Shown here one piece after another: positions 8,262-10,943 of a DNA stretch of 64,000 nt (position 1 is the first letter of the stretch; every line of letters begins with the position of its first letter). Source of the stretch: Sporosarcina sp. E16_8 (GTDB lineage: Bacteria > Bacillota > Bacilli > Bacillales_A > Planococcaceae). Made by a program: the position numbers and the translations under genes. The DNA lies in the NCBI RefSeq assembly GCF_017347095.1, contig NZ_JADPRZ010000004.1:1-64000 (forward strand), given 5' to 3'. Below the pieces are notes generated by a model. It did no database searches and had not been told where the DNA came from. It was given only the letters and a program-made list of their open reading frames with translations.

Positions 8262-8426
8262 TTAAATCTGTTTGATTTCAGTTGGAATATCTCGGAATTC
8301 TACTGATTCTAGAAATCCATTAGACTTCATCTTATCCAGAAACTCTATCAGTTCAATTTTCATTTGATATAATTGCATATCTCTAAAATTAACATCCAAT
8401 TGTTCGTTCGTCGTTTCTATAGGCAT
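8262..8426 (-). CDS. Small acidic protein (54 aa), second gene of a two-gene unit
   Basis: An ATG at 8426 with GAAGGGAGTG upstream opens a 54-codon frame beginning MPIETTNEQLDVNF and ending EIKQI. The protein is soluble and predicted helical in the middle (QLYQMKIELIEFLDKM). It starts only four bases after the stop of the 53-aa gene at 8431-8595, so the two are probably one operon. They are transcribed divergently from the XRE-TPR regulator at 8785, so they are candidate targets of it. No family recognised; the real-gene call rests on the RBS and tight spacing. Confidence 0.55.
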   Translation of the reverse strand: MPIETTNEQLDVNFRDMQLYQMKIELIEFLDKMKSNGFLESVEFRDIPTEIKQI

Positions 8427-8430
8427 AATA

Positions 8431-8595
8431 TCACTCCCTTCGAAAGAATGGTATGCAGGTTTGCATTAAATTTAATATATTGGAAATGACTCTAGAATCG
8501 CGTACTCGTACTTTAGTATCACTATGTTGACTAATACCTTTACCTGTCTTTCTTTCCTTAAAGGCTTCATCAAAATAAATGTCTTCAATTCGCAT
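8431..8595 (-). CDS. Small basic protein (54 codons), first gene of a divergent unit
   Basis: The frame could open further upstream at 8631, but the ATG at 8595 has a purine-rich GGGGGG segment about eight bases before it and gives a protein beginning MRIEDIYFDEAFKER. Its C-terminal half is rich in Arg and Lys (TKVRVRDSRVISN). It shares a 189-bp divergent intergenic region with the XRE-TPR regulator gene. Function unknown. Its proximity to a probable peptide-sensing regulator makes it a candidate regulated gene. Confidence 0.5.
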   Translation of the reverse strand: MRIEDIYFDEAFKERKTGKGISQHSDTKVRVRDSRVISNILNLMQTCIPFFRRE

Positions 8596-8784
8596 GAGTA
8601 CTACCCCCCATTTCTTTGCTGAATTAAACATAACACTAACAAGACTAAAGTAATATTCAATTAGGTTGGGACATTTTATTTGAAAACATGCTTTTTTTTG
8701 GCATTTCGTTAATTAATTTCTCACAATAAAGTGGTATGATAAATGTAACGTATGTACTATGCTATATAAGAGAGGGATTCGCTT

Positions 8785-10080
8785 ATGAAAGTTGGTCATT
8801 TGATAAGGGCAGAACGAATTAGACAAGAGATGAAACAATTAGTATTAGCAAAAGGAATCTGCACGCCTTCTTACTTATCTAAAATTGAACGGAATTTAAT
8901 TTTCCCAAGTGAAGACATAGTCCTGTTACTATTCAATCGATTAGGCATAGATCCGTCGAAGTTACAGAATAATGATAAGAAAACTGAAACTGATTTTGAG
9001 AAGATGCTGGAAGCTACTTACAAAGAAGTAATTACAAATCGAGATGAAAGTTTTACTAAACAAAAACTGGAGTATTTAGAACAACACAGTCCCTTATTTG
9101 AAAATCAAACGCTGTACTACACTTACCTTCTAATTGTATTAAGGTTCCGCATTATTTCAGGCAGTAATTTGAATGAAATAAAAAAGGGAATTGAAGATCT
9201 TGAAGAATTAAGCAAAGATTTCAACCCAAGGCAAGCCTATTTATATAAGTTAAATAAGGCAATTTACTATTATTCAACAGAAAACCGCAATAAATCGATC
9301 GAATATTTCGAGGATGCGTTATTATTAGGTGATAATAATTCTTTAGAGGTTTGGGAAAAAGCAGAATTGAATTATATGATAGGAGTAGTATACACAGCTG
9401 ATGGTCGTATATTTGCCTCCATTGAATATACAAGATACGCGCTCGACTATTTTAGAGAGAATTTTTTAATGAAGAGAGTGCTGGATTGTTATATACTTAT
9501 TGGAATTACTCGTAAGAAAAGCGAACAGTTTCAAGAAGCATTGGAATCCTATACGAAAGCAAAGCAAATTTGTGATGAATTTAATTTACACAATGAAAAA
9601 GGTATTGTTTACCACAACTTAGGTTCTTTATGTGGGACAATGGGCAATAGTGAAGATGCAATTCGTTACTATAAACAAAGTATTAAATTTAGAACAAAGA
9701 AAGACAGCCCTCTTATTTCTATACTTTGTTTAGTTATCGAGTATTCAAAAATGAATCATCAACAGTTTATTAATGAGTGGTGTGATAAAGGACTTTCTTT
9801 ACTTTCACAATTAAGGGATAATAACTTCACATCGTATTATCATCATTTCACCTTTTTTAAATCATTTCATAGTGAACAGGGTTTATCCGGAAAAGTTACC
9901 GAAGATGCGATTGATTATTTTAAAACAATTCAAGACTATCAATATGCACATAAATATTCAATTGCACTAGCAGAATGGTATTACAACAACAGGAAGTATA
10001 AGCTGTCATCTATTTGCTTTCAAGAAGCGAATAGATATGGTTACTTATATAGAAAAATTAATAGATGGGAGGACTTGTAA
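8785..10080 (+). CDS. XRE-TPR transcriptional regulator, RRNPP-like
   Basis: 431 residues. An N-terminal XRE helix-turn-helix (about 1-60; IRAERIRQEMKQLVLAKG, then SYLSKIERN) is followed by an all-helical region with TPR-like repeats (EVWEKAELNYMIGVVYTADG, QEALESYTKAKQICDEF, EDAIRYYKQSIKF). This architecture and size match the RRNPP group (PlcR, NprR, Rgg), which bind re-imported signalling peptides. The next gene overlaps it by one base (TAATG) and encodes a 44-aa exported peptide, the arrangement seen for nprR-nprX. A TATGAT -10-like box lies at about 8736. AT-rich relative to neighbours, suggesting horizontal transfer. Confidence 0.85.
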   Translation: MKVGHLIRAERIRQEMKQLVLAKGICTPSYLSKIERNLIFPSEDIVLLLFNRLGIDPSKLQNNDKKTETDFEKMLEATYKEVITNRDESFTKQKLEYLEQHSPLFENQTLYYTYLLIVLRFRIISGSNLNEIKKGIEDLEELSKDFNPRQAYLYKLNKAIYYYSTENRNKSIEYFEDALLLGDNNSLEVWEKAELNYMIGVVYTADGRIFASIEYTRYALDYFRENFLMKRVLDCYILIGITRKKSEQFQEALESYTKAKQICDEFNLHNEKGIVYHNLGSLCGTMGNSEDAIRYYKQSIKFRTKKDSPLISILCLVIEYSKMNHQQFINEWCDKGLSLLSQLRDNNFTSYYHHFTFFKSFHSEQGLSGKVTEDAIDYFKTIQDYQYAHKYSIALAEWYYNNRKYKLSSICFQEANRYGYLYRKINRWEDL

Positions 10081-10214
10081 TGAAGAAATTATTATCTATT
10101 GTTTTACTTGTAGTAGTTTTAAGTGGTGTTGCTGGTAATCAAGCATTTGCAACTAAAGATGAGGTACCTAAATTGTTCAGAACATCTAGTTTTACAATTG
10201 AACTCCTAAAATAA
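10080..10214 (+). CDS. Candidate signalling-peptide precursor (44 aa)
   Basis: The ATG overlaps the regulator stop codon (TAATG at 10078-10082) with GGGAGGAC just upstream. The 44-residue product has a classic signal peptide: MKK, a Leu/Val core, then NQAFA with a predicted cut after Ala24. This leaves a short tail of 20 residues (TKDEVPKL ... TIELLK). Size, export signal and coupling to a TPR regulator match Phr, PapR and NprX type pheromone precursors. The active peptide would most often be the C-terminal few residues, which is inference. A strong terminator follows immediately. Confidence 0.7.
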   Translation: MKKLLSIVLLVVVLSGVAGNQAFATKDEVPKLFRTSSFTIELLK

Positions 10215-10220
10215 GTACTG

Positions 10221-10256
10221 TAAAGGGAGCAACTCTTAACCGAGTTGCTCCCTTTA
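10221..10256 (+). terminator. Rho-independent terminator
   Basis: A perfect 15-bp stem (TAAAGGGAGCAACTC and complement) with a six-base loop lies directly after the peptide gene and closes the regulator-peptide operon. The T-tract is short. Confidence 0.8.
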
Positions 10257-10943
10257 CATTTGATGCTTAAAATGAAGACCAGTGTTTTGGACGAGAGTAA
10301 GTGCGGTAGTTTTTTCTTGAATCGCCCTTAGCTAAGCTGATTTCAACTTGAATGAGAATGAGAGCGACGTATTCATGAATTAATTGAACTGAGTAAGTTG
10401 GCAGATTAGGCGGACTAGATGTTTTCACAGTAGGGGGAGAGTCATCAAACGCATTTACAACACAAGCACATACAGTCATTATGGGCGCTATAGCACAAGC
10501 AACAAAAAATAGGAAAACGCAAGTTCTGTAACTGTGCTAAGTGTATCTGATCCTGTAAATGTCTTTGAAGGTTTTACCGCAACCACAAAGTGGTTTATCT
10601 GCCAAGTCGGCGTGCAGTGGGTGGACCACCTGTGAGTGCTATTCCAGCCATACTCAAAGATGTTTTTGATTTATTACCAGTCAATGCGTTCTGAGATAAA
10701 GTGGTAAGGGTGCTTGTAATAGCTAGTACAGCGAAGTATTATTTGATGGCGGACACTGTGCTTCTTGTCGATGCTTACGTAGGTATTTGTAAAGTGAAAG
10801 TCGAGGAATATGGTTTTGAACTAGTTAATGGTGGGATTAAAAATACAACCAATTATTGCTAGTAGGCCGTTTTTGTGCGATGGGAACTTAGAAAGAAACA
10901 ATGAAAGGCGGAATTACTTAAATTGAAAAACTAGGCATAATAA
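10257..10943. other. Long region without a convincing gene
   Basis: About 690 bp. An antisense frame at 10267-10479 (70 codons, starting MTVCACVVNAF) has no ribosome binding site. On the plus strand, interrupted stretches around 10520-10620 and 10745-10860 read like decayed coding DNA, for example ADTVLLVDAYVGICKVKVEEY, but they lack starts and I cannot assign them. It is probably eroded accessory DNA next to the peptide operon. Confidence 0.35.

What the first reader, a model, noticed from the sequence alone, without database searches (positions are those of the whole stretch)
8785..10214. Undescribed regulator-peptide pair resembling NprR-NprX quorum sensing
A 431-aa XRE-TPR regulator is followed, with a one-base stop/start overlap, by a 44-aa gene with a signal peptide and a 20-residue tail. 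RRNPP systems have exactly this layout. The peptide gene is below usual length cut-offs and would be missed by standard annotation. The region is AT-rich and surrounded by decayed genes, suggesting a mobile accessory module.
Basis: partly seen in the sequence, partly recalled or inferred. Interest (0 to 1): 0.78.

Follow-up and report, generated by a model that had tools for sequence, protein, structure and literature searches.

The report
Sporosarcina peptide-signalling switch with dedicated target
Bacteria of the genus Sporosarcina carry a small peptide-sensing regulator, the gene for its likely signal peptide, and a matching neighbouring gene that it probably switches on: a compact cell-to-cell communication unit that seems not to have been described.

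Summary
The window comes from a Sporosarcina genome. Receptor (8785-10080; HTH + TPR, Rap/NprR-like fold) and 44-aa exported propeptide (10080-10214) form an RRNPP-type pair: 27 of 27 orthologues found in 68 Sporosarcina genomes keep the propeptide, with invariant MKK, A, D and P. Its Shine-Dalgarno lies in the receptor's C-terminal WEDL codons; most receptors without a peptide have GAA instead of GAG there.

Upstream of all 27 receptors lies a small divergent gene, orfB (window 8262-8426, minus), absent from 40 of the 41 other Sporosarcina genomes. Between them are an invariant TTGGGACATT arm, a degenerate second arm 39 bp on over the receptor promoter, and an extended -10 facing orfB, 30 bp from the first arm. 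This composite occurs exactly once in 26 genomes (1-nt shift in the 27th), with no other exact copy in the 68. The same spacing recurs in other genera with different divergent genes.

Best reading: a self-contained quorum-sensing switch whose receptor controls orfB and itself. It is an NprR-like RRNPP subfamily, not NprR: contact residues for Spo0F and NprX are mostly replaced. DNA binding, pheromone sequence and orfB function are inferred.

The parts
8785..10080 (+). receptor: XRE-type HTH (about residues 1-60) plus TPR superhelix, 431 aa; C-terminal codons TGG GAG GAC TTG carry the Shine-Dalgarno of the peptide gene
10080..10214 (+). propeptide, 44 aa, MKKLLSIVLLVVVLSGVAGNQAFA / TKDEVPKLFRTSSFTIELLK; likely pheromone lies around DEVPKLF(RT)
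   Evidence: cleavage and pheromone borders inferred
10219..10258 (.). inverted repeat of 17 pairs just after the peptide gene, likely end of the two-gene transcript
   Evidence: terminator-like on the minus strand only; plus-strand role inferred
8735..8740 (+). putative -10 (TATGAT) of the receptor-peptide promoter
   Evidence: pattern; not listed by the consensus scan
8715..8725 (+). right arm AATTTCTCACA of the long-spaced inverted repeat; TTTC invariant in 27 of 27, full TCCCAA only in G004, G023, G038, G043
8666..8675 (+). left arm TTGGGACATT, invariant in 27 of 27 orthologous promoters
8627..8635 (-). putative extended -10 of the divergent promoter (TGTTATGTT read on the minus strand), 30 bp from the left arm
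8431..8595 (-). orfA, 54 aa (MRIEDIY...), first gene of the divergent transcript; similar ORF in 9 of 27 loci; no Pfam match above cut-off
   Evidence: start at the internal ATG inferred
8262..8426 (-). orfB, 54 aa small helical protein, no known family; present beside all 27 receptors

Best explanation
A self-contained peptide quorum-sensing switch. The receptor gene and the propeptide gene are co-transcribed and translationally coupled. The propeptide is exported by Sec, trimmed to a short peptide around its D-x-h-P-[KRE]-h core, and re-imported by an oligopeptide permease (inferred from RRNPP biology, not tested). Receptor dimers or tetramers bind a long-spaced inverted repeat (TTGGGACATT-N39-AATTTCyCA) between two divergent promoters. 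From the left arm the receptor activates the divergent promoter, which has a conserved extended -10 at a fixed distance and no conserved -35, and so makes the small helical protein OrfB (with OrfA in some species). From the right arm, which overlaps the -35 region of its own promoter, it controls its own operon. OrfB would be the output, perhaps a protein-protein regulator. Shown by sequence comparison: the pair, the coupling, the linkage of orfB, the fixed promoter geometry. Inferred: that the receptor is the factor that binds, the sign of regulation, the effect of the peptide, and what OrfB does.
For: Pair: 27 of 27 orthologues have the propeptide; HTH+TPR; profile best PDB hit NprR 2.5e-22, RapF 5.8e-19; AF2 model pLDDT 86.3 with best Foldseek hits Rap and NprR. 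Coupling: Glu codon of the C-terminal WE[DE] is GAG in 60 of 60 receptors with a peptide, but GAA in 11 of 12 without one, background GAG 1105 of 3990. Target: orfB beside 27 of 27 receptors and in 1 of the other 41 Sporosarcina genomes (Fisher 4e-18). Operator: arm invariant 27 of 27 while the 30 nt next to it vary; TGnTATnnT at one offset in 26 and 1 nt off in G018; the exact composite found 26 times in 68 genomes, each at this site, 0 exact elsewhere. Other genera: TTGGGAAAC-N42-GTTTCCCAA without mismatch once per genome in 7 of 7 genomes of genus g12, each before the peptide-bearing receptor; a -10-like hexamer (>=5 of 6) at the same offset 39 in 12 of 23 non-orthologous sites, next best offset 5 of 23; about 6 of 12 lineages, P about 1e-6 against the mean of other offsets (approximate).
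Against: No binding, expression or peptide data. The HTH part of the model is of modest confidence (pLDDT 61-72 by block). Relatedness inflates every count. 56 of 79 non-orthologous receptors examined have no TTGGGA within 230 bp, and the upstream receptor of the g12 tandem has TTGGGA but neither hexamer nor second arm. The right arm is degenerate in most Sporosarcina. The consensus promoter scan found neither proposed promoter. Peptide tail and receptor distances correlate (r 0.61) but no better than signal peptide and receptor (0.75), so there is no specific sign of pheromone-receptor co-evolution. Loose searches (3 mismatches) give many sites in all or most genomes, with or without the receptor, partly above the reversed control, so weaker targets elsewhere are neither shown nor excluded.
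Confidence: 0.6

Rival explanations
1. The conserved arm and its two promoters are controlled by another transcription factor; the receptor is only one of the regulated genes and acts elsewhere.
For: Binding was not tested. The receptor would then be a passenger of a shared divergent promoter.
Against: The exact composite site occurs only at this locus and similar sites lie before related receptors in other genera with other divergent genes: the site travels with the receptor family. A factor with one site per genome that is always beside this receptor is most simply the receptor. The HTH is the best conserved part of it (mean pairwise difference 0.20 against 0.45 for the TPR part).
Confidence: 0.18
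2. It is a true NprR: bifunctional, holding back sporulation through Spo0F when peptide-free and activating degradative genes when peptide-bound.
For: NprR is the best solved relative, and the propeptides share a P-charged-hydrophobic core with NprX (SKPDIVG, PMC4970707); one relative has five repeats of QDKP[DE]ITS (L157).
Against: On the alignment, the NprR residues needed for Spo0F (D107, Y118, E188, Y223) read N 22/D 5, V/T/I/L/M, K 21 (E 1), F 15/L 11/I 1; the peptide-contact residues R126, W167, H201, R343 read mixed (R 2), mostly R (no W), A/V/S, mostly D (no R). Only the dimer residue Y410 is kept (Y 21/F 6). The alignment is distant, so single positions may be off.
Confidence: 0.1
3. 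The receptor only regulates its own operon and orfB is a conserved neighbour that sets receptor activity (an anti-regulator), not an output.
For: orfB is a short single helix, like many small proteins that bind regulators (recalled); it never occurs away from the receptor except in G058.
Against: In G058 orfB is kept without a clade-A receptor, and in other genera quite different genes sit divergently, which suits an exchangeable output better than a dedicated anti-regulator.
Confidence: 0.15
4. The 44-aa product is not a pheromone but a membrane microprotein or toxin.
For: Short hydrophobic N-terminus; weak hits to lipoprotein and phage membrane-protein profiles.
Against: The conserved part lies in the exported tail (D, P), not only in the hydrophobic stretch; weak best hits include PhrK-type pheromones, below the cut-off (0.02); a relative encodes five tandem repeats of the core, the known form of multi-copy pheromone precursors of NprR-type systems (PMC9765709, passages).
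Confidence: 0.05

Closest known systems
NprR-NprX (Bacillus cereus group)
   Same: HTH + TPR receptor of similar length; propeptide gene directly downstream; P-charged-hydrophobic core; best solved relative
   Different: 17-18% identity over the fold; residues for Spo0F and NprX contact mostly replaced; a divergent dedicated target and a private long-spaced operator, which I know of for no NprR (recalled; not searched for NprR as such)
Rap-Phr (Bacillus subtilis group)
   Same: TPR fold (RapI 3.5e-10), downstream exported propeptide
   Different: Rap proteins have no HTH; this one has
AimR-AimP (arbitrium phages)
   Same: receptor-peptide operon; palindromic operator with short arms far apart (ACT...AGT in 31 bp, PMC6536502 passages); one dedicated small target
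   Different: not on a phage; arms 10 bp, about 60 bp overall; target divergent instead of downstream of the peptide gene
'NprR-NprX' systems listed for a Priestia koreensis plasmid by RRNPP_detector (PMC10075063)
   Same: a plasmid receptor of that strain is 28% identical to ours, about as far from the NprR structure as ours (1.1e-12), and its 42-aa downstream product has the core EEFPEPT
   Different: I could not see the supplement, so whether this receptor is one of the two listed there, and whether that catalogue lists Sporosarcina, is unknown

Membership tests
RRNPP(A) receptors | tandem TPR superhelix of Rap/NprR type | tested here: met
RRNPP(A) receptors | N-terminal HTH (all but Rap) | tested here: met
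   HTH_3 3.6e-6 against a cut-off score it passes (27.3 vs 23 bits)
RRNPP(A) receptors | adjacent short exported propeptide, conserved with the receptor | tested here: met
   27 of 27 orthologues; 29 of 47 fetched family members by the script's filter, 30 with L157
RRNPP(A) receptors | receptor binds the imported mature peptide | not testable with these tools
   needs binding assay
RRNPP(A) receptors | regulation of a target gene by the receptor | tested here: inconclusive
   promoter geometry and linkage only
NprR | Spo0F-binding residues D107, Y118, E188, Y223 | tested here: not met
   on the distant alignment; residues from PMC4970707 passages
NprR | NprX-contact residues R126, Y165, W167, H201, R343 | tested here: not met
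   (R126 kept in 2 of 27, the others in none)
NprR | conserved glycine after the hydrophobic helix of the propeptide (PMC9765709) | tested here: inconclusive
   many but not all peptides have a glycine there; not scored
Rap | three-helix bundle in place of an HTH | tested here: not met
   HTH present
AimR | carried by a temperate phage or prophage | tested here: not met
   no relative in viral contigs or phage records; prophage genes around the locus were not systematically searched

The most novel reading that the evidence does not exclude
A family of interchangeable quorum-sensing modules in the Sporosarcina family: receptor + pheromone + a fixed long-spaced operator that fires one divergent output promoter, with the output gene swapped between genera (orfB, a DUF3006 protein, YvrJ, others). 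OrfB is a new family of small effector proteins that exists only as the private output of one pheromone receptor.
Probability: 0.45. Interest if true: 0.72.

Novelty: new variant of a known kind. Interest (0 to 1): 0.57.

Why it matters
RRNPP catalogues are built from receptor and peptide alone and leave the target open. Here the sequence itself points to a single target and a single operator per genome, so what a chromosomal RRNPP system does becomes directly testable: one promoter, one small protein. The geometry that recurs with different outputs would also give a ready, orthogonal signalling part and a way to predict targets of related receptors.

Tried and rejected
Regulon search: the arm (TTGGGACATTTT) occurs three times in the own genome, but the other two lie inside coding genes. 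TTGGGACATTTTNTT gave 23 sites in 23 of 68 genomes: 21 at the receptor, 2 inside other coding regions (G011:C6, G046:C89); it misses 6 of the 27 orthologous sites, which vary after the arm. With 3 mismatches nearly every genome has sites (68 of 68; 63 of 68; lists cut), so no wider regulon can be claimed. G008 has a second element copy in front of a secreted Peptidase_C92 gene (3.7e-8), but it does not pass the composite pattern (three of its six fixed -10 positions differ), so it is only a lead.

In genus g12, 13 further sites with 2-3 mismatches were found beside the 7 exact ones, against 8 for the reversed control: taken as chance.

Adjacent conserved target downstream: rejected; apart from the receptor no gene of 90 aa or more is near all 27 (next best 15). 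RNA element: no Rfam match. Phage or plasmid origin: not supported, although the receptor matches a PHROG of unknown function (phrog_5208, 2.6e-25). Co-evolution of tail and receptor: not specific. OrfB: no Pfam or PHROG family of note (best 0.003 and 0.015 in single or few members), no PDB fold match.

Rows dropped: in the GAG/GAA test, receptors without a W/L-E-[DE]-like end were set aside by the script (10 with, 21 without a peptide), then L045 and L056 (not the motif), and L157 was moved to 'with peptide' after its 96-aa propeptide was seen; one counted row (L167) is not a true WED end. G018 was left out of the column count because of its 1-nt shift.

Full report
What the locus is. The window is part of a 214-kb contig of a 4.38-Mb genome. 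Eight named relatives of the receptor found in genome contigs are all Sporosarcina, some on contigs of the same length as those of 'same genus' handles, so the genus is Sporosarcina. The receptor (8785-10080, 431 aa) has an HTH_3 and TPR repeats. The own genome has no other full relative at E<=1 (one 62-residue match at 0.34).

The pair is real. In 68 Sporosarcina genomes 34 have a match at E<=1e-10; 27, one per genome, are orthologues at 47% identity or more, the rest are paralogues. All 27 carry the propeptide: 26 with ATG overlapping the stop by one base, one (G043) with TTG. MKK, one alanine, D and P are invariant; the tail around them varies (mean pairwise difference 0.59). The core is D-x-[LVMFT]-P-[KRE]-hydrophobic. 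Of 56 peptides from orthologues and other genera, 55 fit a loose [DENQ]-x-(x)-P pattern, with K or R after P in 42 and I, L, V or P next in 50. One relative (L157) has a 96-residue propeptide with five repeats of QDKP[DE]ITS[IT]N, close to the NprX heptapeptide SKPDIVG as given in PMC4970707 (passages). This places the pheromone at the core and not at the C-terminus.

Coupling. The receptor ends in WEDL or similar because TGG-GAG-GA is also the Shine-Dalgarno of the peptide gene. GAG is used in 60 of 60 receptors with this ending and a peptide, and GAA in 11 of 12 without one, while GAA is the commoner Glu codon overall (2885 against 1105). Loss of the peptide is followed by a silent change in its ribosome site: a natural control that the ORF is translated.

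Fold and family. The AF2 model (27 sequences, pLDDT 86.3, pTM 0.75; HTH blocks 61-72) matches Rap and NprR in the PDB (RapI 3.5e-10; NprR 5dbk_B TM 0.82 by target). The profile finds NprR first (2.5e-22), then an engineered TPR protein and RapF. Residues that NprR uses for Spo0F and NprX are mostly replaced. So it works like an RRNPP receptor and is nearest NprR, but is not NprR. With the profile, 74 of 261 genomes of the family, in 11 of 19 genera, have relatives at E<=1e-40. Of 47 relatives from other genera that I fetched, 29 have an adjacent peptide by the script's filter, 30 with L157.

The missing half: orfB. In each of the 27 loci a small ORF on the other strand lies upstream (start 216-373 nt before the receptor start, by the script's choice of start). 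It is 49-61 aa with an M-[KR]-x-E-L-x-x-F-[VL]-x-x-M-x-[SA]-x-G-x-L-x-x-V core. A profile search of 261 family genomes finds it in those 27, in G058 (9.5e-9) and weakly in G115 (0.009). In G058 it stands without a clade-A receptor, before a patatin-like gene, a gene also found upstream of the receptor in G004, G012, G038 and G043: probably a locus that lost its receptor. OrfB has no Pfam or PHROG family and is modelled as one helix, residues 3-35 (pLDDT 75.6), with no PDB match. In 9 of 27 a further ORF (orfA) precedes it on the same strand; in the window orfA ends 4 bp before orfB.

The shared control region. TTGGGACATT is invariant in 27 of 27, 114-132 nt before the receptor start. A second, degenerate arm follows: TTTC is invariant at one spacing, and TCCCAA is complete in four genomes (G004, G023, G038, G043). 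Towards orfB, TGnTATnnT lies 30 bp from the first arm in 26 genomes and 29 bp in G018, while most positions between vary. The exact composite (16 fixed bases) occurs 26 times in 68 genomes, each at this site; allowing one mismatch adds 5 scattered sites, against 11 for the reversed control. The arm would lie about 46-55 bp upstream of the orfB start of transcription, where activators commonly sit (recalled), and no -35 is conserved. The second arm lies just upstream of the receptor's own -10.

Other genera. In genus g12 seven of seven genomes with a receptor tandem have an exact TTGGGAAAC-N42-GTTTCCCAA before the peptide-bearing receptor, once per genome. The divergent gene there is a DUF3006-like protein (2.1e-7, just under the cut-off). 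Among 79 non-orthologous receptors, 23 have a TTGGGA within 230 bp; in 12 of these a -10-like hexamer lies at offset 39, the Sporosarcina offset; no other offset exceeds 5. Seven of the 12 are near relatives; the others are L141 (g12), L149 (g14, divergent YvrJ 3.4e-18), L153 (g17), L160 (g15) and the Sporosarcina paralogue L047. The other 56 receptors and the upstream g12 receptors do not show it, so this is a recurrent, not universal, design.

Mechanism. I think the receptor, with or without peptide, activates orfB from the first arm and controls its own operon through the second, with the peptide as density signal. The sign of the peptide's effect cannot be read from sequence. OrfB is likely a protein-binding regulator, by size and shape only.

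Literature. No paper in the held library has both RRNPP and Sporosarcina, and the listed papers of three further searches do not describe this; the two with a Sporosarcina term show 0 occurrences in every listed paper. PMC10075063 (sections 6 and 7 and passages) reports 34 high-confidence receptor clusters and tens of thousands of looser pairs; its supplements could not be read, so the pair, though not the module, may be listed there. PMC9765709 was seen in passages.

Noticed in passing
L133-L139 (genus g12, seven genomes): Tandem receptors: the upstream one has no peptide in 7 of 7 and has its own divergent 69-80 aa membrane protein; a candidate listener to its neighbour's or another cell's pheromone.
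   Followed up: partly
L157 (G200:C1, second receptor): 96-aa propeptide with TTG start and five repeats of QDKP[DE]ITS[IT]N, likely five pheromone copies.
   Followed up: partly
L248 (G058:C54:86000-94000): orfB-like gene left alone before a patatin-like gene in a genome without the orthologous receptor.
   Followed up: partly
L227 (G008:C5:49819-49876): Second copy of the operator-like element before a secreted Peptidase_C92 (YiiX-like) gene; its -10 fits poorly.
   Followed up: partly
L040-L054 (Sporosarcina paralogues): Several other receptor-peptide pairs in Sporosarcina with their own peptide cores (e.g. DENPRPTEFP, REELPEVLGG, DDDLPEPLKG); up to five receptors in G012.
   Followed up: partly
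L056-L058, L060-L067, L069, L071: XRE-TPR proteins of Sporosarcina, 22-27% identical, with no adjacent exported peptide found by the script.
   Followed up: no
L172 (NZ_CP061869.1, Priestia koreensis plasmid): Related receptor at 28% identity with an annotated 42-aa 'hypothetical protein' next to it, core EEFPEPT.
   Followed up: partly
G021 and G022 genomes: Many near-identical TTGGGACATTCGTTGATCACA... sites, probably a dispersed repeat.
   Followed up: no
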